A stretch of DNA of 64,000 bases from Bacteroidaceae bacterium (GTDB lineage Bacteria; Bacteroidota; Bacteroidia; Bacteroidales; Bacteroidaceae). The position numbers and the translations under genes are program-made. The stretch lies in NCBI GenBank assembly GCA_017547385.1, contig JAFYPU010000007.1, positions 44,613 to 108,612 of the forward strand, given 5' to 3'. Position 1 is the stretch's first letter; every line of letters begins with the position of its first letter. Under the pieces are notes generated by a model. That model was not told the DNA's origin and ran no database searches. It saw nothing but the letters and a program-made list of their open reading frames with translations. Below are positions 3-62,122 of this stretch, piece by piece.

Positions 3-77
3 TATGTTTACGTCATCACCGCACTCGACCGTCTGCATAACGAATCAAAACCGGTCAAGAAGAAAGTGAAACTCTGA
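3..77 (+). CDS. C-terminal end of a GHL10-type glycosyl hydrolase (partial)
   Basis: An open frame enters from the left edge and stops at 75-77. It encodes 24 residues, beginning YVYVITALDRLHNES and ending in a lysine-rich tail. The pattern V-T-A-L-D-R-x-x-N-E-S is the last strand of the fibronectin-III-like domain that closes many Bacteroidales family-10-like (GHL10, DUF187) lipoproteins. The full GHL10 protein on the minus strand near 12 kb has the comparable segment VTAVDAYGNES. Only the tail is visible, so the family call is an inference. Confidence 0.55.
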   Translation, partial: YVYVITALDRLHNESKPVKKKVKL

Positions 78-184
78 CAAGCACAAGCCGCATTTCGTAT
101 CCGTGGCACAAAAAAACATTGATTTCATCGAAGAAAACAGGAAAACATTCAATAAATTTCCACCCAGCTTTTACCATTTAACAC

Positions 185-2611
185 ATGAAGGTTCTGAAAT
201 TCGGTGGTTCCTCTGTGGGAACCGCACAAAGCATAGCCAACGTCAAACAAATCGTTGAAGCCACCCCCCACCCTGCCGTCATCGTTGTGTCCGCACTCGG
301 AGGTGTTACCGACCAACTGCTGACACTCTCGCAGAAAGCGGCAGCCGGTGATGAAACATACCGAGAAATCACTGAAGCCCTGGCCGAACGTCATCACAAC
401 ATGGTGGCAGATGCCATTGTCCCTTCCCGACAAGCACAAGCCCATGCGCAAATCGAAGCCCTCATGAACGAATTGCGCAGCATTTTGCACGGTGTTTTTC
501 TCATACAAGACTTAACCGTCAAGACGGCAGACGCCATTGTTTCTTATGGTGAAAGACTGTCTTCCGTCATCCTTGCCGCACTTCTTGAAAAGGCTCAACA
601 CGTTGATGCAAGGCAATTCATAAAAACCACACGCTCTGCCGACAAGCACGTGGTGGACTTTGAAACTACTAACCATTTGGTGCAAAAATCATTGCGCCAC
701 ATCGATGGCATCACTGTGCTGGGCGGATTTATTGCATCAGATGCTCAAACCGGCGTAACCACCCATTTGGGTCGCGGTGGCTCCGACTATACGGCAGCCA
801 TCATTGCTGCAGCCCTTGAAGCCGAAGCGCTCGAAATATGGACAGATGTTGATGGATTCATGACGGCTGACCCACGTATTATTCCTACGGCATACACCAT
901 CGACGAACTGAGCTACGATGAAGCCATGGAACTTTGCAACTTCGGAGCAAAGGTGGTCTATCCTCCGACCATCTATCCCGTCTGCGTAAAGAACATTCCC
1001 ATTTTTATTAAAAATACATTCAACCCCTCCGGTAGCGGTAGCGTTATTCGCAAAGACATTGCTCCCACAACACGTCCCATCCGAGGCATTTCATCGGTCA
1101 ATTGCATGAGTCTGGTAACCGTCAGCGGACTTTCAATGGTGGGAGTCATCGGCGTGAACCGACGCATCTTCACCACATTGGCCGGCGGCGGCATCAGTGT
1201 TTTCATGGTAGCGCAAACTTCTTCAGAGACGAGCACCAGCATGTGCGTAACACCCGAAGATGGTGCCCGTGCTTGTCAATTGCTCGATGCCGAGTTTGCC
1301 AAAGAGATTGAAGACGGAGCCATGTTTCCGGCCCAATTACAGGAAGGCCTGGCCAGTGTGGGAGTGGTGGGCGAACGCATGAAGCACATCCCGGGGATTG
1401 CCGGCAAACTTTTCAGTGTGCTGGGACGTAACGGTATCAGCGTTTGCGCTGTGGCACTCGGTGCGCTGGAAATGAACATAAGCCTTGTCATCGAGCAATC
1501 ACAGCTGCGCAAGGCATTGAATGTGCTTCACGACAGTTTCTTCCTCAGTGAATACCAAGAGCTCAACCTGTTTGTTTGTGGAACAGGCACTGTGGGCAAC
1601 AAACTGATTGAACAGATAGCAGCACAACGCGAACTGCTGATGCGCGAACGTGGGCTGAAGATAAATCTGCTGGGCGTTTCAGGACGCACCAAAGCCGTTT
1701 ACAATCGCACTGGCATCGATCCGAAAAATTATCGCGAGGCCATGAAAATCGGGGTAGACGGAGGCATCGACCGCATGGTGCAGGAGATTATCGACATGAA
1801 CCCGTTCAACAGCGTATTCGTGGATTGCACGGCCTCTCCCGAGGTAGCCGAGAAATACGAAACACTTCTCCGCCACAACGTTTCGGTGGTAGCAGCCAAC
1901 AAGATTGCTGCCTCGGGGTCATTCGAATCCTATCAACAACTCAAACAGACGGCACGCGAACGTGGCGTGAAGTATCTTTTCGAAACCAACGTGGGAGCCG
2001 GACTCCCCGTTATCAACACCATCAACGACCTCACCGGCTCGGGCGACCGCATCCTGCGCATCCAAGCCGTTTTGAGCGGCACGCTCAATTATGTATTCAA
2101 CACTTTATCAGCCGACATCTCCCTGAGCCAAGCCGTACGCATGGCACAGGAAAACGGATACAGCGAACCCGACCCACGCATAGACCTCTCAGGAAAAGAC
2201 GTGATACGCAAACTCACCATCTTGGCACGCGAAAGCGGATACCAGGTTGAGACCGACGAAGTGGAAGCTCGCTTGTTTATTCCTGAAGAACTCTTTGCCG
2301 GAACGTTAGATGAATTCTGGGAAAAACTTCCGGCACTGGACGATTTTTTCGAGAAAGAACGCCGTCGGTTGGTGAGCGAAGACAAATGCTGGCGATTTGT
2401 GGCCGAATGGAACAACGGCAAAGGAAGCGTCGGATTGTGCGAAATAGAACGTGGGCATCCCTTCTACGCACTTGAAGGTAGCAACAACATAGTTTGCCTT
2501 ACCACCGAACGATACAAAGAATACCCTATGCTCATTCAGGGATATGGCGCAGGAGCTGATGTTACTGCTGCCGGAGTTTTTGCGGACATTATGCGAGTTG
2601 CAAACATTTAG
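185..2611 (+). CDS. thrA: Bifunctional aspartokinase / homoserine dehydrogenase
   Basis: The 808-residue product catalyses two steps of the aspartate pathway to threonine and methionine: phosphorylation of aspartate and reduction of aspartate semialdehyde to homoserine. The aspartokinase half starts at once with KFGGSSVG (residues 5-12). Paired ACT domains lie at roughly 315-455 and suggest feedback control by threonine. The homoserine dehydrogenase half begins with the nucleotide-binding GTGTVGNKLIEQ segment near 465 and runs to the end. Length and order match ThrA/MetL fusions. The start ATG follows an AT-rich gap without an obvious ribosome site, normal for this phylum. No homoserine kinase or threonine synthase gene follows; a nucleotidyltransferase does, so the threonine pathway is not completed here. 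Confidence 0.95.
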   Translation: MKVLKFGGSSVGTAQSIANVKQIVEATPHPAVIVVSALGGVTDQLLTLSQKAAAGDETYREITEALAERHHNMVADAIVPSRQAQAHAQIEALMNELRSILHGVFLIQDLTVKTADAIVSYGERLSSVILAALLEKAQHVDARQFIKTTRSADKHVVDFETTNHLVQKSLRHIDGITVLGGFIASDAQTGVTTHLGRGGSDYTAAIIAAALEAEALEIWTDVDGFMTADPRIIPTAYTIDELSYDEAMELCNFGAKVVYPPTIYPVCVKNIPIFIKNTFNPSGSGSVIRKDIAPTTRPIRGISSVNCMSLVTVSGLSMVGVIGVNRRIFTTLAGGGISVFMVAQTSSETSTSMCVTPEDGARACQLLDAEFAKEIEDGAMFPAQLQEGLASVGVVGERMKHIPGIAGKLFSVLGRNGISVCAVALGALEMNISLVIEQSQLRKALNVLHDSFFLSEYQELNLFVCGTGTVGNKLIEQIAAQRELLMRERGLKINLLGVSGRTKAVYNRTGIDPKNYREAMKIGVDGGIDRMVQEIIDMNPFNSVFVDCTASPEVAEKYETLLRHNVSVVAANKIAASGSFESYQQLKQTARERGVKYLFETNVGAGLPVINTINDLTGSGDRILRIQAVLSGTLNYVFNTLSADISLSQAVRMAQENGYSEPDPRIDLSGKDVIRKLTILARESGYQVETDEVEARLFIPEELFAGTLDEFWEKLPALDDFFEKERRRLVSEDKCWRFVAEWNNGKGSVGLCEIERGHPFYALEGSNNIVCLTTERYKEYPMLIQGYGAGADVTAAGVFADIMRVANI

Positions 2612-2782
2612 CAACATTTTTTTACTAAAACAATACGTGGCTTCCACCTTTTTTCGTAAGTTTGCTACGTCTTCAGACTTTTACGAGAAAAGCCTATGAA
2701 AGTCTGCAGTCCCTCACCGCAAAGTTCCAAGAGCGAGCGGTAATTATGAAAAGCAATTCTAACCATTTTAAAACCTGATAAA

Positions 2783-3694
2783 ATGAAACCTACACTTTTT
2801 CTCCTCGCAGCAGGAATGGGTAGCCGCTATGGCGGTCTGAAGCAGCTGGACGGCGTAGGCCCTCACGGCGAAACCATCATGGACTATTCAATTTACGATG
2901 CCATCAATGCCGGTTTTGGAAAGCTCGTTTTCGTTATCCGCAAGGATTTTGAAGAAGACTTCCGTCGCATCGTTCTTTCCAAGTATGAAGGACACATTCC
3001 TTGCGAACTCGTGTTCCAAGCCCTTGATGCGCTTCCCGAAGGATTCACCTGCCCGGCTGATCGCACAAAACCCTGGGGAACCAACCACGCTGTCATGATG
3101 GGCAAGAGCGTCATCAATGAACCGTTTGCCGTTATCAACTGCGACGATTTCTATGATCGCGATGCATTCAAGGTGATGGGTAAGTTCCTTTCCGAACTTC
3201 CCGAAGGAAGCACCGGCAAATACGCCATGGTGGGCTTCCGTGTGGACAACACACTTTCTGAAAGCGGAACCGTGAGCCGCGGTGTGTGCGAAAACGACGA
3301 AAACCACCACTTAAAGAGTGTGGTAGAGCGCACAAAAATCCAGCGCATGGACGGACAGGTGAAATACCTCGATGAAAACGAAGAATGGGTGGCTATCCCC
3401 GACACAACTCCCGTATCCATGAACTTCTGGGGCTTTACCCCCGACTACTTCGCCCACAGCGATGAATTCTTCAAGAACTTCCTGAGCGACCCGAAGAACA
3501 TGGAAAACCTTAAGAGCGAGTTCTTCATTCCTCTCATGGTGGACAAACTCATCAACGACGGCACTGCCACCTGCGAAGTACTTGACACAACCTCCAAGTG
3601 GTTCGGCGTAACTTATCCCGAAGACCGTCCGGATGTTGTTGCCAAGTTGCAAAAACTCGCCGATGATGGTATCTATCCCGAAAAGATGTTCTAA
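2783..3694 (+). CDS. Sugar-phosphate nucleotidyltransferase-like protein
   Basis: This 303-residue protein opens with the NTP-transferase signature LLAAGMGSRYGGLKQLD (residues 6-22), where the glycine-rich turn and the lysine bind the nucleotide phosphates. INCDDFYD (about residues 117-124) is the metal-binding acidic motif of the same fold. It belongs to the RmlA/GalU-like superfamily and probably transfers a nucleotidyl group to a sugar phosphate; the real substrate cannot be read from sequence. It stands alone between thrA and a strong terminator. The leader contains a TAAGTTTG -7 box at 2657-2664 and a hairpin at about 2676-2706 (arms AGACTTT and AAAGTCT). Confidence 0.8.
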   Translation: MKPTLFLLAAGMGSRYGGLKQLDGVGPHGETIMDYSIYDAINAGFGKLVFVIRKDFEEDFRRIVLSKYEGHIPCELVFQALDALPEGFTCPADRTKPWGTNHAVMMGKSVINEPFAVINCDDFYDRDAFKVMGKFLSELPEGSTGKYAMVGFRVDNTLSESGTVSRGVCENDENHHLKSVVERTKIQRMDGQVKYLDENEEWVAIPDTTPVSMNFWGFTPDYFAHSDEFFKNFLSDPKNMENLKSEFFIPLMVDKLINDGTATCEVLDTTSKWFGVTYPEDRPDVVAKLQKLADDGIYPEKMF

Positions 3695-3740
3695 AAATCT
3701 TGAGCAAATCGTTCAAAACTTTTCATAGAACACACAAATA

Positions 3741-3790
3741 AAGCACCGCCCTGCTCACATTTCCATGTTGCAGGGCGGTGCTTGTTTATA
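3741..3790 (+). terminator. Rho-independent terminator after the nucleotidyltransferase gene
   Basis: A perfect 14-bp stem, AAGCACCGCCCTGC at 3741-3754 paired with 3770-3783, is followed by a T-containing tract. It lies 46 bp past the stop codon at 3694. Confidence 0.85.
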
Positions 3791-3794
3791 CAAA

Positions 3795-3826
3795 GAAAAA
3801 AGATGAACTCCGCATGAAGTTCATCT
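3795..3826 (-). terminator. Terminator of the tRNA-Lys transcript
   Basis: On the minus strand a 9-bp stem (arms 3801-3809 and 3818-3826) is followed by a run of six T residues (A-run 3795-3800 on the plus strand), directly after the 3' end of the tRNA. Confidence 0.8.
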
Positions 3827-3831
3827 TTCCG

Positions 3832-3904
3832 TGATTCGCTTGGGGTTCGAACCCAAGACCCCAACATTAAAAGTGTTGTGCTCTACCAGCTGAGCTAGCG
3901 AATC
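3832..3904 (-). tRNA. tRNA-Lys (anticodon TTT)
   Basis: Read on the minus strand the sequence folds as a cloverleaf. The acceptor arms GATTCGC and GCGAATC close it. The D-arm contains AGCTCAGCTGGTAGAGC, and the anticodon stem-loop is CAACACTTTTAATGTTG with TTT in the loop. The T-arm holds GGTTCGAACCC. Position 73 is A and the CCA end is not encoded. It has its own promoter (3931-3962) and terminator. Confidence 0.95.
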
Positions 3905-3930
3905 AAACCTTTATTGCTGTTAAGCGAGTG

Positions 3931-3962
3931 CAAAGGTAGGCATATTCACTGTTACAACCAAA
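3931..3962 (-). promoter_or_regulatory. Bacteroidota-type promoter of tRNA-Lys
   Basis: On the minus strand TTTG (3959-3962) and TACCTTTG (3931-3938) are separated by 20 bp. This matches the -33/-7 consensus of the primary sigma factor of this phylum and lies 27 bp upstream of the tRNA. Confidence 0.8.
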
Positions 3963-4181
3963 CTTTTTCTACACTTTTTTGCTATCCCACCGTTTTCACA
4001 CCCCATTTGGAGGATTCTTCCTGCGTCATTCTTTTCTCTGCCGGTGATGTTCGTTTCGGCTTCAGGGCGGCAGAAACAGCAAAAACCTTATGATTTGCTT
4101 GCGCTTGCGCTCTGCTTGCAGCTACAGTTGACAACTTTGTTCGCAGAAGTGAGGTCTGGGTTCGGAAAATGCTTAAACAAG

Positions 4182-4213
4182 TTTGGCTTTTCACTCGCCT
4201 TGCACTAACTTTG
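4182..4213 (+). promoter_or_regulatory. Promoter of alaS
   Basis: TTTG at 4182-4185, a 20-bp spacer and TAACTTTG at 4206-4213 form a full match to the Bacteroidota consensus, 27 bp before the alaS start. A 22-bp stretch (4194-4215) covering the -7 box is identical to one upstream of the radical SAM gene at 38210-38231. Of the gap 3695-4239, the rest holds the tRNA unit; 3963-4181 shows nothing else I can support. Confidence 0.85.
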
Positions 4214-4239
4214 CCGACAAAAATTTAATAATATAATAT

Positions 4240-6870
4240 ATGATGACAGCTAACGAAATACGCGAGTCGTATAAGAAATTCTTCGAATCGCAAGGACACT
4301 TGGTGGTTCCCTCAGCCCCGATGGTAATAAAGGACGACCCCACCTTGATGTTCACAAACGCCGGTATGAATCAATTCAAGGACATTATCCTTGGCAACCG
4401 CGAGCCAAAGAGTCGCCGCCAAGCGGATTCACAAAAGTGTCTTCGCGTCAGCGGAAAACACAACGACTTGGAGGAAGTGGGCCACGACACTTACCATCAC
4501 ACTATGTTCGAGATGTTGGGCAACTGGAGCTTTGGCGATTATTTCAAGAAAGAAGCTATTAAATGGGCATACCAATACTTGGTTGAGGTATTGGGCATCA
4601 ATCCCAAGGATCTCTATGTAACTGTTTTTGAAGGCTCTCCCGAAGAGGGCATCGGCCGCGACGACGAAGCCGCAAGCTATTGGGCAGAATACTTCCCTGC
4701 CGACCACATCATCAACGGCAACAAGCACGATAATTTCTGGGAGATGGGCGACACCGGTCCCTGCGGTCCGTGTTCGGAAATCCACATCGACAGTCGCACT
4801 GACGAGGAAAAAGCTGCCGTGCCCGGTGCTTCACTTGTCAACAAGGACAATCCGCAAGTCATCGAGATTTGGAACCTTGTGTTCATGCAATACAACCGCA
4901 AGGCCGACGGCTCACTCGAACCGCTCCCCGCGAAGGTCATTGACACAGGCATGGGCTTCGAACGCTTGGTGCGCGTGATGCAAGGCAAGAACTCCAACTA
5001 CGACACCGATGTGTTCCAACCCATCATTCGTAAAATAGGAGAACTCTCAGGCTACACCTATGGCAAGGACGAAAAGGTGGACATCGCCATGCGTGTCATC
5101 GCCGACCACCTGCGTGCCATCGCTTTCAGCATTGCCGATGGTCAACTTCCCGGAAATGCCAAAGCCGGTTACGTCATCCGCCGCATTTTGCGCCGTGCCG
5201 TGCGCTACGCTTACACTTTCCTGGGTCGCCGCGAAGCCTTCATGTATCTGCTCATCCCCACCCTCGTCAGCGAGATGGGCGAAGCCTATCCCGAACTCCC
5301 GGCACAACAGAAACTCATTTCTCGCGTGATGCAGGAGGAGGAAGAATCGTTCCTCCGCACCTTGGCCACCGGCATTTCGTTGCTCGAAAGCGTGATTGCC
5401 GAGACCAAAGCAGCCGGAAGCACCGTGGTAAATGGCCAGAAAGCCTTCACATTGTTCGACACCTATGGCTTCCCCCTCGACCTCACGCAGCTCATTTGCA
5501 GCGAGCAGGGTCTCACAGTTGACGAAGAAGGTTTCAACACCGAGATGCAGAAGCAGAAAGAACGTGCCCGCAATGCAGCGTCTGTGGAAACGGGCGACTG
5601 GGTGGTACTGGCCGAAGGCGAAACACAGTTCAAGGGTTGGGACTTCACCGAATACACTTGCCGCATTTTGCGCTACCGCAAGATGCAACAGAAGAAGCAG
5701 ACTTACTATGAATTGGTGCTCGACACTACGCCTTTCTACGGCGAAATGGGTGGCCAGGTAGGCGACAAGGGTGTTTTGGTGAACGAACAGGAAACTGTGG
5801 AAATCTTTGACACAAAACACGAAAACAATCTGCCCATTCACCTGACCAAGCAACTGCCGGCCAATCCCGCAGCCGAATTTATGGCTTGTGTGGACGTGGA
5901 AGCTCGCCGTGCTTGTGAAGCCAACCACACCGCGACCCACTTGCTCGACCAAGCCTTGCGCGAAGTGCTCGGCACGCATGTCGAACAGAAAGGCTCGCTC
6001 GTAACGCCCGAATATCTGCGCTTCGACTTTTCCCACTTCCAGAAGGTAACTCCCGAAGAACTGCGCGAAGTGGCACGCATCGTGAACGGCCGCATCCGCG
6101 AGGACATCGCCCTTCAGGACCATCGCGACATCCCCATCGAGGAAGCCAAGGAATTGGGTGCCATTGCCCTTTTCGGTGAGAAATACGGCGACCGCGTTCG
6201 CGTGGTGCAATTCGGCGAAAGCGTAGAGTTCTGCGGCGGTTGCCATGCTGCCAGCACCGGCCGCATCGGCTTCATCCGCATTCTTTCCGAAAGCAGTGTA
6301 GCCGCCGGCGTACGCCGCATCGAAGCCATCACAGGCCATGCTGCAGAAGAGAGCCTCTATGCACAAGAAGACATGATGCAGATGGTGAAAGAATTCTTCA
6401 ACAATTCGAAAGACCTCACCGCAGCCATACGTCGCTTCGTCGAGGAGAACGAAAACCTCAAGAAGCAGGTGGACGGCTTCGTCAAGGAGCGTGTTCGCAG
6501 TCTGCGCGACCGCCTCATCCAGTCGGCCCTCACCGTAGGCGAAGTGAAACTCGTGAAAGGCATCATTCCCGTAGACATTGCTCCCGAAGCCGTGAAAGAT
6601 CTCGCTTTCCAAATTGGCAATACGCTCCCCGAAAAGATGGTGTGCGTGCTCGGCAGCCACAATGACGACAAGCCCCTGCTCACCGTCATGCTCAGCAAGG
6701 ACATGGTGGAGACCGGCGGTCTGCATGCCGGCAACATGGTGCGCGAAGCCGCCAAGCTCATCAAGGGCGGCGGCGGTGGTGCTCCCCACTTTGCCACAGC
6801 CGGTGGTAAGGACTGCAACGGCCTGGACGAAGCTGTCAACAAGGTAGTGGAACTCGCCGGATTGGCATAA
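4240..6870 (+). CDS. alaS: Alanyl-tRNA synthetase
   Basis: The 876-residue enzyme charges tRNA-Ala. The class II catalytic core occupies about residues 1-460. It includes [15 protein letters not shown] and the [13 protein letters not shown] loop that binds ATP and alanine. The editing domain has the zinc-ligand pattern [11 protein letters not shown] with a later FCGGCHAA. The C-Ala domain ends in RVGGGGG-type glycines, here [15 protein letters not shown]. Two ATGs lie side by side (4240 and 4243); either may be used. Length is normal for the family. A long antisense frame under this gene is a codon-bias shadow. Confidence 0.97.
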
Positions 6871-6910
6871 CAATTCTGTAAACACACTTCCAACTGTCTG
6901 AAATAGGAAA

Positions 6911-6939
6911 GGCGACCCCCCTCGTAGGTCGCCTTTTTT
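6911..6939 (+). terminator. Terminator of alaS
   Basis: Stem GGCGACC (6911-6917) with GGTCGCC (6927-6933), followed by six T residues, 40 bp past the alaS stop codon. Confidence 0.9.
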
Positions 6940-6958
6940 ATGTATTCGGCATATACAA

Positions 6959-7025
6959 AAATTCGCAAGGCGTTCAGAAAATTCTGCAGTGCTTGTAGAA
7001 AATTCTGAACGCCTTGCGGATTTTT
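6959..7025. repeat. 21-bp-period palindromic array, copy 1
   Basis: Three units start at 6965, 6986 and 7007, exactly 21 bp apart. Cores are GCAAGGCGTT, GCAGTGCTTG and GAACGCCTTG, joined by AGAAAATTCT-like spacers. The outer units are perfect inverted copies over 16 bp (6964-6979 and 7003-7018), so the whole array can also form a hairpin. It sits between the alaS terminator and the promoter of the 6S-like RNA. Confidence 0.85.
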
Positions 7026-7055
7026 GCACAGAGCATGCACAAAACAAAAGATAGT

Positions 7056-7088
7056 TTTGTTTAATTTTCAGATAAAAGACTAAATTTG
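7056..7088 (+). promoter_or_regulatory. Promoter of the 6S-like RNA
   Basis: TTTG at 7056-7059, a 21-bp spacer and TAAATTTG at 7081-7088. A start of transcription near 7092-7095 is expected. No protein start lies within 300 bp downstream, which fits an RNA gene. Confidence 0.75.
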
Positions 7089-7091
7089 CGG

Positions 7092-7321
7092 CAAACCAAG
7101 AAAACAAATGCCTATGGTATAAACAAATCGACCCAACAAGACATACAAACTGAGCGTTAGCTTTTGTTTCTGTTACCCGAAATCTGGAAAATTTCATAGC
7201 CTAATAGGAAACTTAAGTCATAACGCCCGCGCTCTATAGGCGTGGGCTTGACTGTATTCCATTAGGCAGGTATTCCAGAACCTCGGGTAAGGAATGTGAA
7301 AGTCGGCTTCGCGCCCTTTTT
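7092..7321 (+). ncRNA. ssrS: Probable 6S RNA (rod-shaped structured RNA)
   Basis: Nested complementary segments fold the region into one long interrupted rod. They are 7173-7180 with 7283-7290 (TTACCCGA/TCGGGTAA), 7183-7189 with 7273-7279 (TCTGGAA/TTCCAGA), 7200-7205 with 7261-7266 (CCTAAT/ATTAGG), 7207-7210 with 7257-7260, and a terminal hairpin 7225-7231 with 7241-7247. An asymmetric open bubble lies between the second and third helices. A weak outer helix ends just before a five-T run at 7317-7321. Size and shape match 6S RNA, which binds RNA polymerase holoenzyme as a promoter mimic. From memory, the Bacteroidales-1 RNA motif has been proposed to be this phylum's 6S RNA. The 5' end is uncertain: the core starts near 7150 while the promoter predicts about 7092. 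Confidence 0.72.
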
Positions 7322-7399
7322 GTATCCCTCTTCCGCGTTTCATCTACCATTACCCAAGCCTATGAAGCCGAGGCAAAATTTTCTAAAACTTTTCATCTT

Positions 7400-9199
7400 A
7401 TGAGAAACTCATTCCTTAGAAAATGGCTACCCACATTGTTTATGTTTGCCATCCTCGGCATTTTTGCCGCCTGCTCCGAAGACATTTCAGATGAAATCGC
7501 CATAGACCCGAATAAGGAAGTACCCGATCCTGCCGGCACTGTACAACTTTCGATGCGTAATTCCGATAATGGACAAACTGAATTAGACCAAATATACATC
7601 GAGAATGAGAACTTCCGTGGTCATGAAGGAGCTCACTATTTCACTTCTCTTGGACCGGTAAACGGATTAGGAAATGTGGCTCACATCCCTACGAGTGGAT
7701 GGGCTTCGAGTGTTGCCGTCGTCCCCGGACATGGATATGTTGCTTATTCCGCCGGCGATTCTTATTGGGGTATACCCCAAAGATGGTATCGCATATATGT
7801 AACCGACTATATCGTTAGTACATCCGGCGGCATCATCGGCGCAAAAGTGAAATACCAAGCCCCATTTAAAGGAAGCGACGAAGTCATCGACCTCGGCATG
7901 AAGGAAATAACCTTGAATACGAAGGGCGACACTATCGCCCTGCCTTTCAAAAACAGCGGAGTCATCTTGTTTCATGCCTCCACAGACTGTCCACAACTCA
8001 GCGTAGCGAAGATGTCTACCTACGATCATTCTTTCCTTACCAACGGCATAGTCATCACTTCCGAAGCCAACAACTCAGATACTCCCGTAGAGGGCACTGT
8101 TACACTGACCACACTGCACGGAAAGAAAACTACGCTTAAAGTTATCATTGCCGGCGCGAAGCCTTTTATTGAGTTAGAGCAAGAGAAAGCGAAAGTTTCT
8201 GCAGCACAACAAACCAGCGATATAGCATTTACCACCAACATCTCGGCCGACGAACTCACCATCAGCGGTGCTCCGACTTGGTGTAAAGCTGAATTAATCA
8301 GCAATGAGAAGAATAATGCAGCCCAAAAGAATGCTGTAAAATTCATCGGAAGCCGTGCAATCAACCAAGAAGAAGCCACATTAGCGGCCTCCGGAGTTTC
8401 AAACATAAAGCTCAGATTGACATTCAGCGAGAACGAAAGTCAGAAGGACCGTTCGGCCAATATCACCATCAAGAGCAAGGATGGCAAGACATCTGTTCAA
8501 CTTCCCATCGTGCAAGAAGGTGTTGTCCTCGAAGTCAAGAGAAATAAAATAGGATTTGAAAGATTTCCAGCATATACGATTATCACTCTCAACACCACGG
8601 TCAAGAATTGGGAAGCAGAGAGTTCTGAGGATTGGTGCAGCTTATCCAAATCTGGGAATCAACTCTTTATCGACGTAGAAGCCACTACCATCGACCGAAC
8701 GGCCATCATTAGTTTCAAAGGCTTTGACACCAAAATCACCGTACGCCAAAGCAAATATGCCGTAGGCGATGAATTCAGTGAAGATGGAGTAGAAGGAATC
8801 GTAGGATATATTGGTGACAGTGTGCGTTATGTTTGCAAGAAATTGCCTGAATGTGTTTGGAGTTACAAAAATGAGGGAGTCGGTGCAACAAGTACTACAG
8901 ACGGAGAATATAATATGGCACAAATTAAAAAAATTCCATATTGGGAAGAGGACTATATTGCATTTTTAGCTTGTGATAGACTTAACAACAACAAAGTTTC
9001 TGGTTGGTATCTACCCGCAGTTGAAGAATTAAGATTGATACGCACATCTCACAGCTATTTTCAAGAAGACTTGTGGTCTTCCACCGAATTAGAGGAAAGT
9101 GTAAATAGCGCTTACTGTGTTGACCTGCGACGTGGTGGTGCTGTATCCTGGAGATTCAAGAATGAAATGCGTACTATAATAGCCATACACAAATTTTAA
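7400..9199 (+). CDS. Surface lipoprotein with BACON-like domains and a DUF1566/FISUMP-like C-terminus
   Basis: The 599-residue product has a lipoprotein signal: a hydrophobic stretch and then GIFAACSED, with Cys25 as the lipidated residue. After an N-terminal region of unknown fold come at least two BACON-like (Ig-type, carbohydrate-linked) repeats. They can be seen as W-C-x-A/S segments (APTWCKAEL, SEDWCSLSKSG), each followed by an R-x-A-x-I-x-F/I strand and an I-V-Q-E/V-R-Q-S type end. The last 130 residues contain GWYLPAVEELRLI and WSSTE, the pattern of the DUF1566/FISUMP fold. It is probably exposed on the outer membrane; no enzyme motif is seen. Start ATG at 7400 follows the structured RNA gene. 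It has its own terminator, so it is a single-gene unit. Confidence 0.8.
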   Translation: MRNSFLRKWLPTLFMFAILGIFAACSEDISDEIAIDPNKEVPDPAGTVQLSMRNSDNGQTELDQIYIENENFRGHEGAHYFTSLGPVNGLGNVAHIPTSGWASSVAVVPGHGYVAYSAGDSYWGIPQRWYRIYVTDYIVSTSGGIIGAKVKYQAPFKGSDEVIDLGMKEITLNTKGDTIALPFKNSGVILFHASTDCPQLSVAKMSTYDHSFLTNGIVITSEANNSDTPVEGTVTLTTLHGKKTTLKVIIAGAKPFIELEQEKAKVSAAQQTSDIAFTTNISADELTISGAPTWCKAELISNEKNNAAQKNAVKFIGSRAINQEEATLAASGVSNIKLRLTFSENESQKDRSANITIKSKDGKTSVQLPIVQEGVVLEVKRNKIGFERFPAYTIITLNTTVKNWEAESSEDWCSLSKSGNQLFIDVEATTIDRTAIISFKGFDTKITVRQSKYAVGDEFSEDGVEGIVGYIGDSVRYVCKKLPECVWSYKNEGVGATSTTDGEYNMAQIKKIPYWEEDYIAFLACDRLNNNKVSGWYLPAVEELRLIRTSHSYFQEDLWSSTELEESVNSAYCVDLRRGGAVSWRFKNEMRTIIAIHKF

Positions 9200-9260
9200 A
9201 TTCCTCAAGAGAATTGTGAGAAGTTGAAAAATACAGTCCCCAACCATCATCATCCATTCA

Positions 9261-9287
9261 GGCGACCCTCGCGAGGGTCGCCTTTTT
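9261..9287 (+). terminator. Terminator of the BACON lipoprotein gene
   Basis: Perfect 11-bp stem with no separate loop bases (9261-9271 with 9272-9282; the innermost bases must open), followed by five T residues. Confidence 0.88.
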
Positions 9288-9313
9288 ATGTTCTCAAAGC
9301 ATTTTCATTCTTC

Positions 9314-9443
9314 GCAAGGCACTTCACAAACAATCACAAGGCTTTCAACCAAATTCTGAAAGCCTCGCAGCTAAACTGGCAAGGCCTGCCAGAAAATTGG
9401 CAAGCCGTGCCAAAAAAGTGGCAGGCCTTGCCAGTTTTGCTGA
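9314..9443. repeat. 21-bp-period palindromic array, copy 2 (six units)
   Basis: Units start at about 9314, 9336, 9358, 9379, 9400 and 9421; spacing is 22, 22, then 21 bp. Cores are GCAAGGCACTTC, ACAAGGCTTTC, GAAAGCCTCGC, GCAAGGCCTGCC, GCAAGCCGTGCC and GCAGGCCTTGCC. The last three are near-perfect palindromes. This is the longest array of the family in the window. A 76-codon frame through it merely translates the repeat. Confidence 0.82.
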
Positions 9444-9505
9444 AATGGGAGTAAAAAGTTAACGTCGGGCTACGAAATCTTTCGTTATTGAGCTAATGAA
9501 TTTCT

Positions 9506-9549
9506 CCGGCTTACCGCTTGCGAAAAACTGCGATGCGATGACTCACGCC
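9506..9549. repeat. Left 44-bp direct repeat of the R-M island
   Basis: The 44 bp are identical to 11796-11839 except at one position (A at 9527, G at 11817). Read on the minus strand the copy still encodes the end of the GHL10 protein (RGVSHRIAVFRKR, stop at 9511-9513), detached from its gene. It marks the left boundary of the restriction-modification insert. Confidence 0.9.
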
Positions 9550-9729
9550 TCGCAGCAAAAGTAATTTCCCCATAATCGGTAGTATTAATGTAAACCTGCC
9601 GGTCATAATAACCAGCGATGGCATTTTGTCGCAAAAAGGTGCAACGAAGCCGCTACAAAACGAACGCGACGCAAATTGTACCCTGCAAATGCCAAAAGTC
9701 CTGTTATTTTCACTAATTTTACAGGCGCG

Positions 9730-10944
9730 ATGAATGCCAAGACATTAAAAATAGTTCCGAAGATAAAATATGGCGACGAGCGACTTGCTTTGCTCTCCCA
9801 CTATATGCACACTCGCGACATGGTCGCAGGAGATTGCTACCGAAACGAAGCGGAAGCGTTATTGTGCAAGGGGCAACCCATGACGGACGCGGAAGTATCT
9901 ATTGCCTGCGAACCCGTGGTGCAGTATAACCTTTTTCCCGAATTTTACTCCGTGCCGTTTCCGCCGTCGCTGGAACAGTCTGTACCATTCATTGACCTTT
10001 TTGCCGGTATTGGCGGCATACGCCTACCGTTTGACGAATTAGGCTACAACTGCGTATTCACTTCCGAATGGGACGCGAAAGCCTGCCAAACATACTTCGC
10101 CAACTTTGGTATATATCCCTTTGGCGACATCACAAAGATACCCGCCGAGCGTATCCCTGCTCACAAACTGCTGCTAGCAGGCTTCCCGTGTCAGGCGTTC
10201 TCAATTATGGGCAAGATGAAAGGATTTGAAGACACGCGTGGCACAATGTTTTTTGAGATCGAGCGCATATTGAAGCACCACTGCCCGCCCTACATACTGC
10301 TTGAAAACGTAAAGCAACTCGTAGGACACGACGGCGGACGTACTTTCAAAGTCATCCTTGAGCACTTGGATGCTCTGGGTTATTTCGTGAAGTGGAAAGT
10401 GCTCAACGCGCTTGATTTCGGACTGCCGCAGAAGCGTGAGCGTGTCATCATCGTGGGCTTTACCGACAAGGCCGACTACGAGCGGTTCAACTTTGATTTC
10501 ACGCCACAAAAGCACGACCTTGCCGCTATCCTTGAAGACGAAGCAAACATTGACAAGACGCTTTACGCTTCCGACCACATCATTGCGCGGCGCAGAGAGC
10601 AGACATTAGGCAAGAAAGTGTTTTACCCCTCCATTTGGCATGAGAATAAGGCTGGCAATGTGTCCGTACTTGACTATTCTTGTGCATTGCGAACGGGGGC
10701 TTCATATAACTACCTGCTTGTGAACGGCGTGCGCCGACCCACATCCCGTGAACTCCTGCGCCTGCAAGGTTTCCCCGAAGAGTTCAGAATTACAGTTACC
10801 CACCAAGACATACGCCGACAAACGGGAAACTCCGTGGCTGTTCCGATGATACGAATGGTGGCACGCAAGATAGACAACATCATAAAAAGCAAAGAAAATG
10901 AAGCATCCACGTTTACGCGACTCAAAACGGCTCCTTACGCTTGA
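9730..10944 (+). CDS. DNA (cytosine-5) methyltransferase of a type II R-M system
   Basis: The 404-residue enzyme methylates carbon 5 of cytosine in an unknown target. Motifs appear in the canonical order. FIDLFAGIGG (about residues 87-96) binds AdoMet. GFPCQAFS holds the catalytic cysteine (about residue 154). ENVK supplies the catalytic glutamate, and QKRERVIIVGF is motif VIII. RELLRLQGFPEEF and QTGNSVAVP are motifs IX and X. The stretch between VIII and IX is the target-recognition domain. An in-frame TTG at 9676 would add 18 residues unlike the family; I prefer ATG 9730. The gene overlaps the next by 47 bp, so the two are translated together. It protects the host against the partner nuclease. 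Confidence 0.93.
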   Translation: MNAKTLKIVPKIKYGDERLALLSHYMHTRDMVAGDCYRNEAEALLCKGQPMTDAEVSIACEPVVQYNLFPEFYSVPFPPSLEQSVPFIDLFAGIGGIRLPFDELGYNCVFTSEWDAKACQTYFANFGIYPFGDITKIPAERIPAHKLLLAGFPCQAFSIMGKMKGFEDTRGTMFFEIERILKHHCPPYILLENVKQLVGHDGGRTFKVILEHLDALGYFVKWKVLNALDFGLPQKRERVIIVGFTDKADYERFNFDFTPQKHDLAAILEDEANIDKTLYASDHIIARRREQTLGKKVFYPSIWHENKAGNVSVLDYSCALRTGASYNYLLVNGVRRPTSRELLRLQGFPEEFRITVTHQDIRRQTGNSVAVPMIRMVARKIDNIIKSKENEASTFTRLKTAPYA

Positions 10945-11632
10945 ACCATACGCATTGAACGAAATACCCGAAAGCATCATCCGCAAAGTAGGACGCAGAC
11001 TTGTCTATATGCTCTGTATCGGTCGCACCGACCTAACGGGCGACGATTGGGGTAACGTCTTTGCTGATGCCGTTGGCGGCAAACACTTGCAGTCGCCTGT
11101 AGGTATTGCCGATGTTACTTTTGAGAAAATGGCTTGGTCAATGAAGACCGTCAAGAAGACCAACCCTCACCAAGACGGCACAGCACTACGACTCATCAGC
11201 GGACGTTGCTCGCCCGACTATTCCTATGGCATCACCGACCCGCACGAGGACATACAGAAAACGGGGCGTGCCGTGCTGAATATCTGGAATGAGCGCGTAA
11301 ACATCGCCTACGACCACTTCAACCCCGTGCGCACCTCTGTGCTTGTGCGCTCTAATGACCTCTTGACCTACACGCTCTTCGAAGAAGAGAACCACCGATA
11401 CACCACCAATGCTTATCATTGGGAAGAGAACCGCAATGGCAACCTAATTGGTGTAGACATTGAGACGGGCGAAACGCGTTTCACTTGGCAACCCCATGGC
11501 TCACAATTCACCATCCATACGCGCACACCGAAAAACGCCGTCAAGTTCCGCATACGCCGGCCGCCCGTACTGAGTATGGAAGCCACGCTGAAACAGATAA
11601 ACTTCAGCGAGGATTGGATAGAGATTCTCTAA
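10898..11632 (+). CDS. Probable type II restriction endonuclease (partner of the C5 methyltransferase)
   Basis: I do not recognise the 244-residue sequence by family. Its position is the main evidence: it overlaps the end of the methyltransferase gene by 47 bp on the same strand, and nothing else lies in the repeat-bounded unit before a terminator. Residues 56-90 contain GKHLQSPVGIADVTFEKMAWSMKTVK. An acidic residue followed by a strand with S-x-K resembles the PD-(D/E)xK nuclease core (candidate D68, E72 and K79 or K82), but this is a guess from spacing. No signal peptide or membrane segment is visible. Alternative: a Vsr-like or accessory protein, less likely given the size. Confidence 0.62.
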   Translation: MKHPRLRDSKRLLTLEPYALNEIPESIIRKVGRRLVYMLCIGRTDLTGDDWGNVFADAVGGKHLQSPVGIADVTFEKMAWSMKTVKKTNPHQDGTALRLISGRCSPDYSYGITDPHEDIQKTGRAVLNIWNERVNIAYDHFNPVRTSVLVRSNDLLTYTLFEEENHRYTTNAYHWEENRNGNLIGVDIETGETRFTWQPHGSQFTIHTRTPKNAVKFRIRRPPVLSMEATLKQINFSEDWIEIL

Positions 11633-11659
11633 TAGCAACGCACATATATTATATATAAA

Positions 11660-11688
11660 GGCAGCACTTGCGGAAGTGCTGCCTTTTT
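11660..11688 (+). terminator. Terminator of the R-M operon
   Basis: Perfect 10-bp stem GGCAGCACTT/AAGTGCTGCC (11660-11669, 11674-11683) with a GCGG loop and five T residues, 27 bp past the restriction gene. Confidence 0.9.
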
Positions 11689-11795
11689 CGTCTGCAACAA
11701 AAGATAAAGGACGATAAAGCAAGGTAAGAGTAAACAGGAATTAAAAAGCTGCACATGGCCGCTAATTCTTTCACTATCGAATTTCACATTGTTTA

Positions 11796-11839
11796 CCGGC
11801 TTACCGCTTGCGAAAAGCTGCGATGCGATGACTCACGCC
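11796..11839. repeat. Right 44-bp direct repeat of the R-M island
   Basis: Second copy of the repeat at 9506-9549 (43 of 44 identical). It spans the stop codon (11801-11803) and last 12 codons of the minus-strand GHL10 gene, so this copy is the functional gene end. Confidence 0.9.
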
Positions 11840-13531
11840 ACGACGCCCGAGGGTGCGCACCACATAGAAACCGGGAGCCAAATGCCACACTGAAAGCGCA
11901 GTCTGCATGGGGCAGGTCATCACATGGCGTTCCTGCACATCGGTGATGAGCAGATAATCGGCATCGGCCGCTGTCTCGGGCAGCCGGAAGGTGTCTGCCA
12001 CTTCGGGATATTGCTCCGCAAGCAATGTAGCCGCTATGGTGGTCCATTGCGGAGCGCTTTCGTTGCCATAAGCATCGACAGCCGTAACGGCATAAGGTGC
12101 ATGAAGCAATGCGGGAAGTGCCGGTGCATAGCGGTATTCGGTGGATGTAACGCGCTCTGCCACTGCAGTCATGCCGGAAGTGCTGTCAGCAATATGTTCG
12201 CTGCGACGATAAATGTTGTAATACACCGGCGTATCTTCATTGTCGCGAGCCGCTGTCCAGCGCAAGGTCAAAGAACGTTCTTCCAAGCACAACGATAGTT
12301 GGGGAGCCGTGGGAGCAATGCTGTCTCTCCACGTCATGGGCGGCACACGCGAGGGGAGCGCATAGAAATCTTCAGCCACAAAATCGTAAAGTCCTTTCAC
12401 ATTGTCCGTGAGGAAGCGGCTGCGGAAGAAAGCTTGGCCGCCGATGCCCGTGGCACGGACAAAGTTGAGCTGACGTTGCACCACAGAGAGCGGCCAGTTC
12501 TTTTCGTTCTTGTGCAAGAAGTAGATGCCCAGCCCCGGCACCACGGGCTTTCCTGCAGAACGCTCCTGCCAATCGAGCACAAAGGGATAGAAATGCTTGC
12601 CATCGAAATACATCATCGGGAAGAGCATGTCCATCAGCCCGCTCTGCAACCAGCCGGCGGCATCCTGGTGCACGGCATCACGGGCGTTCCATCCATAACT
12701 GCTCTGACGCGGTGTGTCGGCATATTTTCCCACAGGCGAACAGCTCAACTTCACCCAGGGACGCACGGCACGCACAGCCTCGCCAATGGCACGTACGCAG
12801 CGAGTAACATTGTCGCGTCGCCATTCGGCCTTGTTGCGACCGGCACCATATTTGCGGTATGTCTTAGTGTCGTTAAAGGGGATTCCGCTTTCGGGATAGC
12901 GGATGTAATCCAGATGAATGCCGTCCACATCATATCGCTCCACAATTTCACGACAGATGGAGGCAATGTAGGCAGCTGTGCCCGGCACACCGGGATCCAT
13001 CATCCATTGGTCGCCGCAGCGCTGACAGAGTTCGGGATGCTGACGCGGCAGCGAGCGATTGCCCAAACGCTTCTCCACGTTCACTTTGCAAATAGGGAAA
13101 GCCACCACCCAGGCATGCAGTTCCATGCCGCGTTTGTGGCATTCCTCCACAGCGAAGGCCAACGGGTCGTAGGCCGGTGCCACGCCTGGTGTTCCTGTGA
13201 AAGCACCGTCCCAAGGCTCGATGGCAGACGGATAAGCCGTAGTGGAACGGATGCGAGCCTGGAAGAGCACGGTGTTGACCCCAGCGCGTTGCAAATCATC
13301 GAGGATGGAACACAGCTCAGCTTTCTGCCGTTGTGCCCCCTCCGCTCCCGTTTGCGGCTTTGTAGGCCAATCCAATCCACTGAGTGTGGTGAGCCAGACG
13401 GCACGCACTTCATAACGTGGAGCTTCGGAAAGGAAAATCGGGGTAGCACAGAAAGAAGTTTGTGCTCGCACCACGAAACAACCGAGAGACAACAAGAGAA
13501 CGAAAAAAAGTCGATGGAAAAGATATTTCAT
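11801..13531 (-). CDS. GHL10-type glycosyl hydrolase with a T9SS-type C-terminal signal
   Basis: A secreted protein of 576 residues from the preferred start MKYLFHRLFF; an upstream ATG at 13552 is possible but spoils the signal peptide. The signal ends near VVRAQ. The GHL10 (DUF187, family-10-like hydrolase) barrel spans about residues 30-370. It is marked by EVRAVWLTTLSGLDWP, DVDGIHLDYIRYPE and YDFVAEDF. A fibronectin-III-like domain follows to about 505. The last 65 residues end in LAPGFYVVRTLGRRGVSH and a basic tail, the pattern of a T9SS type A sorting domain. Members act on cell-wall or storage glycans; the substrate is unknown here. It ends the four-gene minus-strand run that begins with the acyltransferase, and its 3' end is the insertion point of the R-M island. 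Confidence 0.83.
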   Translation of the reverse strand: MKYLFHRLFFVLLLSLGCFVVRAQTSFCATPIFLSEAPRYEVRAVWLTTLSGLDWPTKPQTGAEGAQRQKAELCSILDDLQRAGVNTVLFQARIRSTTAYPSAIEPWDGAFTGTPGVAPAYDPLAFAVEECHKRGMELHAWVVAFPICKVNVEKRLGNRSLPRQHPELCQRCGDQWMMDPGVPGTAAYIASICREIVERYDVDGIHLDYIRYPESGIPFNDTKTYRKYGAGRNKAEWRRDNVTRCVRAIGEAVRAVRPWVKLSCSPVGKYADTPRQSSYGWNARDAVHQDAAGWLQSGLMDMLFPMMYFDGKHFYPFVLDWQERSAGKPVVPGLGIYFLHKNEKNWPLSVVQRQLNFVRATGIGGQAFFRSRFLTDNVKGLYDFVAEDFYALPSRVPPMTWRDSIAPTAPQLSLCLEERSLTLRWTAARDNEDTPVYYNIYRRSEHIADSTSGMTAVAERVTSTEYRYAPALPALLHAPYAVTAVDAYGNESAPQWTTIAATLLAEQYPEVADTFRLPETAADADYLLITDVQERHVMTCPMQTALSVWHLAPGFYVVRTLGRRGVSHRIAAFRKR

Positions 13532-19823: not shown

Positions 19824-20031
19824 TTTACACGGAATTTTTGATGAACGGACAAGGCTTTTCTCTTCTGAAATGCAGTATAAAGACACAAAAACAAGTTGCA
19901 CATAAAGACTGCTTTTGTGCATCTTTAATTCTAAAAAGGGCTTGAGTTTTTTTGTCTACAGAGGAGAAAAGCCGAAACAATGTTGGTTTCATCCCCCTGC
20001 ACCATGGACCGAAAACCACTTCGAAGGAGGA

Positions 20032-20104
20032 AAAATCTGCAGTGCTTGCAGAAATTTCCGCAGTGCTTGTTGAAAAATCTGCAAGCACTGCAGATTTCCA
20101 TCCT
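20032..20104. repeat. 21-bp-period palindromic array, copy 3
   Basis: Three units start at 20039, 20060 and 20081, each 21 bp apart: GCAGTGCTTGC, GCAGTGCTTGT and the inverted GCAAGCACTGC. AAATCTGCAG at the start and CTGCAGATTT at the end make the outer arms complementary. It fills the gap between the carboxylase promoter and the GH31 terminator. The rest of 19824-20170 shows only short AT-rich sequence. Confidence 0.85.
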
Positions 20105-24211: not shown

Positions 24212-24280
24212 AAAAATCTGCAAGGCGTTTAGAAATTTCTACAAGCACTGCAGAAAATTCTGCAAGCACTGCGCAAAAGC
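24212..24280. repeat. 21-bp-period palindromic array, copy 4
   Basis: Units start at 24220 (GCAAGGCGTTT), 24241 (ACAAGCACTGC) and 24262 (GCAAGCACTGC), spaced 21 bp with AGAAATTTCT/AGAAAATTCT linkers. It lies between the GH31 start and the terminator of the barrel protein gene. The remaining 24100-24397 holds a weak TACCTTTA box and no gene. Confidence 0.82.
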
Positions 24281-28587: not shown

Positions 28588-33946
<5,359 letters not shown>

Positions 33947-42432: not shown

Positions 42433-42512
42433 ATCATGCGGATGAAACGTTTGTTTCATCCGCATGATAAGAATGTTTCATCCGCATGGAATATTCATTT
42501 CATCCGCATGAT
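42433..42512. repeat. 22-bp-period array of TTTCATCCGCATGAT units
   Basis: Three direct units of TTTCATCCGCATG(AT) start at 42454, 42476 and 42498, 22 bp apart. An inverted unit (ATCATGCGGATGAAA, 42433-42447) pairs with the first over 15 bp with a 6-base loop. Spacers of 7-9 bp differ. It borders the 3' end of the truncated methylase. The rest of 42226-42432 has no gene I can support. Confidence 0.9.
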
Positions 42513-45790: not shown

Positions 45791-45896
45791 TGACACTCGA
45801 GTATCAAGCGCGAGACACTCGAGTATCAAGTGCGTGAGACTCGAGTGTCAAGTGCGTGAGACTCGAGTGTCAAGCCGAGATACTGCAGTGTCAAGG
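45791..45896. repeat. 22-bp-period array with CTCGAG-centred palindromes
   Basis: Five units start at 45792, 45814, 45836, 45858 and 45879. Each holds a 16-bp palindrome-like core (GACACTCGAGTATCAA, GAGACTCGAGTGTCAA; the last has CTGCAG in place of CTCGAG) and a GTGCGT-like 5-6-bp spacer. The array lies in the 435-bp gap between two minus-strand genes. The rest of that gap (45897-46072) shows no gene. Confidence 0.9.
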
Positions 45897-46072
45897 CGTG
45901 AGAAAACTTCAAAAGCGTATTTTGAACATTCCGAACACAGAATGGCAACAATGTTGGCGATGGTAAAACCGGTAGAAAGTGCTTAAGAGGGAATGCCGCG
46001 ACCAACACCATTGTGTTCGGACAGATTGCCGGCACGTCTGCGGACATTTCGCTAAACCTTAAACTGCTCTCC

Positions 46073-62072: not shown

Positions 62073-62122
62073 AAAAATCTGCAAGGCGTTTTAAAAAAAA
62101 GAGAACGCTAAACGCAAAAAGA
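62073..62122. repeat. 21-bp-type palindromic array, copy 6 (degenerate)
   Basis: A unit with AAATCTGCAAGGCGTTTT (core at 62081) is followed about 22 bp later by GAACGCTAAACGC. It has the same AAATCTGCAAGGCGTT core as copies 1 and 4 but a decayed partner. It sits between rplC and the antiporter gene. The stretch 62123-62251 shows no gene. Confidence 0.6.

What the first reader, a model, noticed from the sequence alone, without database searches (positions are those of the whole stretch)
9314..9443. Six dispersed intergenic arrays share a palindromic core repeated every 21 bp
At 6959-7025, 9314-9443, 20032-20104, 24212-24280, 29648-29697 and (degenerate) 62073-62122 the same layout recurs. An 11-bp core of the type GCAAGNNNTTGC or GCAGTGCTTGC is joined by AGAAAATTCT-like 10-bp spacers, with unit starts 21 bp apart. 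Counted directly: 6965/6986/7007, 20039/20060/20081, 24220/24241/24262, 29655/29676, 9358/9379/9400/9421. Twenty-one bp is two helical turns, so successive cores face the same side of the DNA. Every copy is outside genes, several next to terminators. They look neither like CRISPR nor like ordinary transposon ends. They could be binding arrays for a nucleoid or replication protein, REP-like mobile hairpins, or transcript-end structures.
Basis: partly seen in the sequence, partly recalled or inferred. Interest (0 to 1): 0.78.

Follow-up and report, generated by a model that had tools for sequence, protein, structure and literature searches.

The report
Intergenic repeat arrays, fixed 21-bp pitch
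Gut bacteria of one genus carry many short repeat arrays between their genes; different species use quite different letters but the same exact 21-base (two-helical-turn) spacing, which hints at an unknown DNA-level ruler or repeat-copying machinery.

Summary
The window's arrays belong to a genome-wide family: 309 unit hits against 0 in the reversed control. In 651 kb of this genome 186 of 189 core distances of 11-59 bp are exactly 21 or 42. The element is intergenic: usually three 11-bp cores, the outer two mostly complementary, in TpA-free A-tract linkers (TpA in 10 of 325, against 50% in background), with fading 21-bp phasing in the flanks and, in a minority, a tag 44 bp out on one side.

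Only 2 of 58 genomes of the genus carry this sequence, but congeners carry other core families with the same pitch (free-gap searches). Terminators, CRISPR and RAYT-driven REPs are not supported. Most likely these are BIME/PINSR-like intergenic repeats acting at DNA level, spread by an unidentified route, with the two-turn register set by a bound protein or by the copying mechanism. A replichore bias in orientation is suggestive only. Dyad symmetry is clear in the home family and visible in some others, but not shown for all. Function is inferred, not shown.

The parts
6955..7026 (.). Array type A-b-a (cores 6965-6975, 6986-6996, 7007-7017) with A/T-rich flanks; downstream of alaS
   Evidence: folds as one hairpin, z -10.4 against shuffles; identical in sister G008 downstream of alaS
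9314..9437 (.). Array of a variant type: cores 9358, 9379, 9400, 9421; degenerate paired stretch 9335-9369 to its left
   Evidence: z -8.3 for 9350-9437
20030..20100 (.). Array type b-b-B (cores 20039, 20060, 20081)
   Evidence: z -8.5
24212..24280 (.). Array type A-B-B (cores 24220, 24241, 24262); outer cores not complementary
   Evidence: does not fold better than shuffles, z -0.4
29648..29697 (.). Two-core array b-B (cores 29655, 29676)
   Evidence: perfect hairpin, z -9.9
29708..29731 (-). Directional tag GCTTACACTTTGCAAGAAAAACGG, 44 bp outside the 29655 array
   Evidence: contig C32:74320-74343 minus
62081..62091 (+). Single A core with degenerate continuation

Best explanation
The arrays are a lineage-amplified family of intergenic palindromic repeats, BIME- or PINSR-like in kind, that act or are maintained at the level of DNA rather than as transcript ends. 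Shown: genome-wide dispersal, intergenic placement, exact 21-bp pitch, complementarity of the outer cores, TpA-free linkers, presence at most comparable orthologous gaps while core type and central orientation change, and the same pitch with other cores in congeners. Inferred: (i) each family arises and spreads over the chromosome by an unidentified copying or transposition route; (ii) the pitch of two helical turns is held because a protein docks on successive units on one face of the DNA, or because the copying machinery measures two turns; (iii) the central unit inverts by exchange between the complementary outer cores.
For: Hit numbers and controls; rigid pitch; core1-core3 complementarity 8.67 of 11 against 7.01 shuffled, z 10.7, linkers z 9.7; linkers TpA-free, ATAT 0 of 325; placement independent of transcription direction; 25 of 34 comparable gaps occupied in both sister species, 8 with the same core string, centre direction kept in 17 of 26 pairs, orthologous arms more alike than shuffled pairs; three further core families at period 21 or 42 when the gap is left free; period 21 the commonest intergenic tandem period in 8 of 14 genomes sampled.
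Against: No protein, transposase or copying enzyme identified. Within one family all copies inherit the founder's spacing, so only the number of families is independent evidence. 43 of 169 elements have no pair of complementary cores. A-tract linkers are not universal: the linkers of G015/G017 contain CG. A crude dyad score of the congeners' repeat units beats shuffles (<=0.05) in only 9 of 71 overlapping rows. G004, G061 and the small G001 sample have no period-21 array. Some arrays are 22 bp.
Confidence: 0.5

Rival explanations
1. Purely selfish hairpin elements (REP- or PATE-like), moved as single strands by an unrecognised nuclease-transposase; the pitch is the founder's and has no function.
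For: Lineage-specific amplification, 309 and 198 hits against 0-2 in 56 congeners; occupancy differs at 9 of 34 comparable gaps by my finder; strong hairpins; some orientation bias with GC skew.
Against: The one Y1 transposase gene found in G000 and in G008 has no array within about 1.4-2.4 kb and, by eye, the two proteins are not close orthologues. G032 has arrays but no Y1 match; G004 has two Y1 matches but no array in 400 kb. Unrelated families share one pitch. No clean empty site or target duplication seen.
Confidence: 0.27
2. RNA structures at transcript ends: terminators or 3'-end stabilisers.
For: Long hairpins with A and T tracts at their feet; median distance to gene 3' ends 84 bp against 213 bp to 5' ends; the pattern scan lists terminator-like sites inside the 9314 array on both strands.
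Against: As frequent in divergent gaps, which have no transcript end, as gaps in general; 24212-24280 does not fold; 43 of 169 elements lack complementary cores; two of the window's arrays follow an ordinary terminator.
Confidence: 0.08
3. A replication-oriented chromosome signal (KOPS-like polarity), the one-sided tag giving the direction.
For: In one search the tag lies at exactly 44 bp on one side in 22 of 64 elements and on both sides in none; in four long stretches 29 of 36 tagged elements agree with the sign of contig-wide GC skew (p 0.0003).
Against: With 22 more stretches and local skew, 40 of 64 tags (p 0.06) and 104 of 170 centres (p 0.004) agree; contig predictions were right in 10 of 17; the two species share descent, so p values are optimistic; most elements have no recognisable tag.
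Confidence: 0.08

Closest known systems
[quoted passage not shown] section 3.4 read in full)
   Same: Intergenic, non-coding, 177-184 copies per genome, limited to one clade of a Bacteroidales genus, about three quarters of sites shared between strains, no terminal inverted repeats.
   Different: 188 bp; its consensus is in a figure that is not held, so pitch and cores could not be compared. No array structure is described in the section read.
REP/BIME repeats (PMC3733652, PMC6006769; passages read)
   Same: Extragenic palindromes in high copy, in regularly spaced groups of both orientations; species-specific sequences.
   Different: No GTAG/CGTC foot in the consensus, no array beside the Y1 genes, three short cores per element at a 21-bp pitch instead of 20-40-bp REP units.
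ERIC / intergenic repeat units (recalled; named in papers listed)
   Same: About 126 bp, intergenic, imperfect central palindrome (size of ERIC from recall).
   Different: ERIC is not known to me as a 21-bp array; sequences were not compared.
Helix-phased A-tracts of bacterial genomes (PMC4132750; only the start of its abstract in the listing)
   Same: A/T tracts in step with the helix; congeners G004, G015, G017, G032 and G062 show peaks near 10.5, 31 and 52 bp in intergenic DNA.
   Different: In G000/G008 the half-odd peaks are absent (-0.005 and 0.006) and the pitch is two turns, with cores between the tracts.

Membership tests
REP/BIME mobilised by RAYT | GT[AG]G (or CGTC) tetranucleotide at the hairpin foot | tested here: not met
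   Foot consensus is AAAAATCT / AGATTTTT (logo; one search list)
REP/BIME mobilised by RAYT | RAYT gene flanked by the repeats | tested here: not met
   No array in L065 (3.3 kb round the G000 gene) or 5 kb round the G008 gene; G032 carries arrays without a Y1 match
REP/BIME mobilised by RAYT | High-copy extragenic palindromes in alternating, regularly spaced groups | tested here: met
PINSR | Sequence identity to the 188-bp consensus | not testable with these tools
   Consensus only in a figure
PINSR | Intergenic, clade-limited, over 100 copies, most sites shared between relatives | tested here: met
CRISPR | Direct repeats separated by unique spacers | tested here: not met
   11-bp cores in both orientations; linkers are shared across loci
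MITE | Terminal inverted repeats and target duplication | tested here: inconclusive
   Tag at 44 bp on one side only, no outer symmetry beyond about 33 bp from the centre apart from A/T tracts; no clean empty site to show a duplication
Intrinsic terminators | Located at gene 3' ends | tested here: not met
   Context equals background of gaps >=200 bp
Rfam RNA families | Match at gathering score | tested here: not met
   Only a tRNA in the window
BIME as protein-binding site | Binding of gyrase, IHF or another protein | not testable with these tools
   Needs binding experiments

The most novel reading that the evidence does not exclude
The conserved object is a ruler, not a sequence: this genus repeatedly builds and amplifies intergenic arrays with wholly different cores but two helical turns apart, because one dedicated machinery (a unit-stacking nucleoid protein, or an enzyme copying 21-nt steps) measures geometry. 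That would be a class of bacterial repeat defined by its pitch, with core families turning over between clades.
Probability: 0.32. Interest if true: 0.85.

Novelty: new variant of a known kind. Interest (0 to 1): 0.65.

Why it matters
Dispersed intergenic palindromes have long been argued to be selfish or functional. Here several core families in one genus differ in letters but share one exact pitch. That separates what is constrained (geometry; in one lineage also complementarity and A-tracts) from what is free (letters), and makes the question directly testable by changing pitch with letters kept, and letters with pitch kept. It is also a handle for finding a DNA-binding or DNA-copying machinery not yet described in gut Bacteroidales.

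Tried and rejected
Terminators and mRNA ends: not supported by gene context. RAYT/IS200 as the agent: not supported. Replication-oriented signal: strong on four long stretches with contig-wide skew, weaker with 22 more stretches and local skew; contig predictions right in 10 of 17, two of the seven failures at skew near zero; kept as suggestive. Phage origin: 0 exact matches of AGAAAWTTCTRCAAGCACTGC in viral contigs. Pairing of the outer arms: none. Clean empty sites: not obtained; of the 9 gaps called empty in G008, at least one (C9 25862) keeps recognisable outer A cores in the alignment, so 9 is an upper figure. Families outside the genus: 41 kb from four order-level relatives, too little to judge. 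Same-locus comparison of different core families at the alaS downstream gap: only G062 and G008 could be read; G062 seems to have an array of its own letters there, one locus, judged by eye, not counted. Coding control: 21 bp is also the commonest distance of repeated 11-mers in G000 coding DNA (148 pairs, 506,825 k-mers) but about 20 times rarer per k-mer than in intergenic DNA (402, 70,016); as 21 is a multiple of 3, some congener arrays may be coding repeats missed by my predictor (the GC-rich 42-bp array of G017, looks so). Reversed-pattern controls gave 21 and 10 matches over the 58 genomes, 0 in G032 and G065 and 1 in G081.

Full report
Setting. The window lies in a 2.35-Mb assembly (G000, 34 contigs, 86.5% complete). 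Ten proteins next to the window's arrays were scanned: alaS, a BACON-domain protein, a C5 cytosine methylase, a carboxyl transferase, GH31, an outer-membrane barrel, DUF4435, GH2, ribosomal L3 and a Na+/H+ antiporter; no common function.

Observation. The arrays are as described. The 21-bp unit AGAAAATTCTGCAAGCACTGC with up to 3 mismatches occurs 156 + 153 times in G000, its reversed control 0 + 0. In C9 (220 kb), C26 (180 kb) and the window, core pairs 21 bp apart number 59, 48 and 10, and no other spacing below 42 exceeds 3 in any of them. With cores of <=1 mismatch, 186 of 189 distances of 11-59 bp in 651 kb of G000 and 140 of 147 in 640 kb of G008 are 21 or 42.

Anatomy. A first listing gave 68 candidate arrays (a few are chance hits), 51 of them with three cores. 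A scan for three-core elements in 27 stretches (1,291,000 bases) of G000 and G008 gave 170. Core 1 and core 3 are complementary beyond what shuffling gives (8.67 of 11 against 7.01, z 10.7), and so are the two linkers (z 9.7); core 1-2, core 2-3 and the outer variable arms are not. 104 of 169 elements have at least 9 of 11 pairs between core 1 and core 3; 43 of 169 have no such pair among any two cores. The B unit also reads as a 17-bp dyad (6 + 5 + 6) plus a 4-bp A/T linker with covariation inside the unit; the A unit does not. Stem letters change in concert (TCT..AGA, 247 units; GTG..CAC, 19). All-A/T linkers number 161 of 170 and 164 of 170; 10 of these 325 contain TpA against 50% of 21,998 A/T tetramers in other intergenic DNA; AAAT, AATT and ATTT are all common and ATAT occurs 0 times. 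That points to DNA shape, though descent from few founders is an alternative. A/T tracts recur at about -27, -49 and -70 outside the cores (51 elements). Scanning 150 bp on each side of 64 elements, the tag CTGACACTTTG (<=2 mismatches) lies at exactly 44 bp on one side in 22, on both sides in none, with a few hits at other distances. Tag plus A-tract: 40 matches in G000, 33 in G008, 0 in the reversed control.

Placement. 166 of 170 elements lie outside predicted genes (own predictor). Of 159 with both neighbours, 48, 44, 41 and 26 are in >>, <<, <> and >< gaps; gaps of >=200 bp number 86, 107, 87 and 52. 126 of 266 gaps of 250-1500 bp, 26 of 116 of 150-250 bp and 3 of 195 of 60-150 bp hold an element. 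In 64 elements of the first sample the median distance to a gene's 3' end is 84 bp and to a 5' end 213 bp.

Orientation. In four long stretches 29 of 36 tags agree with the sign of contig-wide GC skew. With 22 more stretches and skew taken locally, 104 of 170 centres (p 0.004) and 40 of 64 tags (p 0.06) agree; of 17 contig predictions 10 were right. Sister species share descent, so these p values are optimistic. I treat this as a lead.

Between sisters. Collinear blocks of G000 and G008 are 68-92% identical, mostly 78-87%. Of 61 three-core elements in C9 and C26, 34 could be compared; 25 have an element in the same G008 gap, 8 with the same core string; the centre keeps its direction in 17 of 26 pairs. 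At C26 61370 and 88799 the centre is inverted between kept outer cores. Nine gaps have no element by my finder, but at least one of these keeps outer A cores. Eight G008 elements had no listed counterpart and were not examined. In 26 orthologous pairs outer arms are 0.50 and 0.51 identical against 0.35 and 0.34 shuffled, cores 0.77-0.80 against 0.63-0.68: copies are inherited in place and cores change less than arms.

Distribution. Of 58 genomes of the genus held, G000 and G008 have 309 and 198 unit hits and the other 56 have 0-2. The two are each other's closest relatives by alaS (93%; next 83%). A 28-base exact pattern in the genome collection hit 11 stretches of the G008 assembly and one contig filed as Ruminococcus from another roe deer colon sample, probably mis-binned; records very near the window may be left out there.

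Same pitch, other letters. Congeners' intergenic DNA showed arrays of quite different cores. Three further patterns were searched in the 58 genomes with the gap left free. CCATSSSATGG twice, gap 4-20: only G015 (66 places) and G017 (36); 34 and 34 were listed, all with gap 10, i.e. period 21; control 0. GGAGATTT twice, gap 3-33: G032 36 matches, 33 at period 21, 2 at 22, 1 at 41; G065 14, 12 at 21 and 2 at 22; G066 3 of 3 at 21; six matches in five other genomes, two of them at 21. GTTTGCTG twice, gap 4-34: G081 35 matches, 23 at 21 and 12 at 42; eight matches in seven other genomes, two at 42 and none at 21. Other candidates from samples only: CGACGCCTCGT (G062), TTACAAAGTTTGTAA and TATCTTGCTGATA (G036), AAACCAAGCTTGGTTT and TACCTCTGAGGTA (G067). 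In a tandem-repeat count of sampled intergenic DNA, periods 12-60, period 21 is commonest in G000 (53 of 70), G008 (47 of 62), G032 (8 of 21), G015 (4 of 7), G036 (4 of 6), G064 (4 of 4), G067 (3 of 6) and G062 (3 of 9); tied in G017 (2 of 5) and G065 (1 of 2); 1 of 8 in G081 (4 at 20 or 22, 2 at 42); 0 in G004 (of 16), G061 (of 11) and G001 (of 1). Not every such repeat is a palindrome: a crude dyad score of the units beats shuffles at <=0.05 in 9 of 71 overlapping rows, while G015/G017 (CCAT...ATGG) and G081 (GTTTG...CAAAC) show a dyad by eye. Copies in a family inherit their spacing, so the weight lies in the number of families, at least four, that share it. The G015 and home elements also share, by eye, the layout of about three kept cores with degenerate ones in phase outside.

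Phasing background. A/T-tract autocorrelation in intergenic DNA has peaks at 10.5, 31.5... (mean 0.028-0.050) in G004, G015, G017, G032 and G062; in G000 and G008 these are absent (-0.005, 0.006) while multiples of 21 peak (0.083, 0.070). After masking every found element with 80 bp on each side, multiples of 21 still peak in G000 (0.053, 0.053, 0.045, 0.063, 0.037 near 21-105), part of the 84-85 peak probably due to an unrelated 85-bp repeat. So further weak or different arrays exist.

Mechanism. To be explained together: strict two-turn pitch across families, complementarity of outer cores, freedom of the centre's direction, placement independent of transcription, turnover of letters. A DNA-level array under a geometric constraint explains them best; a selfish element alone explains amplification but not the shared pitch; an RNA role explains neither the placement nor the unpaired elements. 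What imposes the geometry is unknown.

Known kinds. PINSR (PMC4755523, section 3.4 read) is the nearest published case in the order; 188 is close to 9 x 21, but I could not see its sequence. REP/BIME (PMC3733652, PMC6006769; passages read) share the general design but tested hallmarks fail. My nine paper searches (open-access library) listed no report that I recognised as a 21-bp pitch of intergenic arrays in Bacteroidales; I looked into PMC3733652, PMC6006769, PMC5771137 and PMC2267715 by passages and PMC4755523 by outline, passages and one section, and saw the others as listings only.

Noticed in passing
window 45792-45903: Intergenic 22-bp array of perfect dyads (GACACTCGAGTGTC plus an 8-bp linker, about five copies), same idea with other letters and one base longer pitch; folds with z -8.8.
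   Followed up: partly
window 42434-42511: A second 22-bp tandem array, core CATCCGCATG.
   Followed up: no
L035 / C9 96231-96336 and L046 / C26 88884-88987: A separate intergenic repeat of about 85 bp (GCGAGCGGAGAATGAAGCGAAAC...) that ends in the same TGACACTTTG tag and is sometimes in tandem; 11-mers of such a repeat are also frequent in G008.
   Followed up: no
L065 1160-1400: The single Y1 transposase gene of G000 is flanked by its own large nested inverted repeat, not seen elsewhere in the G000 sample; one of its 14-mers occurs once in the G008 C9 sample.
   Followed up: partly
window 3-12679 against L130; 47399-61942 against L161: Intergenic DNA downstream of alaS is nearly identical between G000 and G008, and the ribosomal-protein region is 93.7% identical, above most other blocks.
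   Followed up: no
L169 and L168 (G036): Runs of an 8-bp phrase (AGTAAACA / AGTAGACG) in intergenic DNA, a different short-period repeat; G062 shows 16/24/32-bp distances as well.
   Followed up: no
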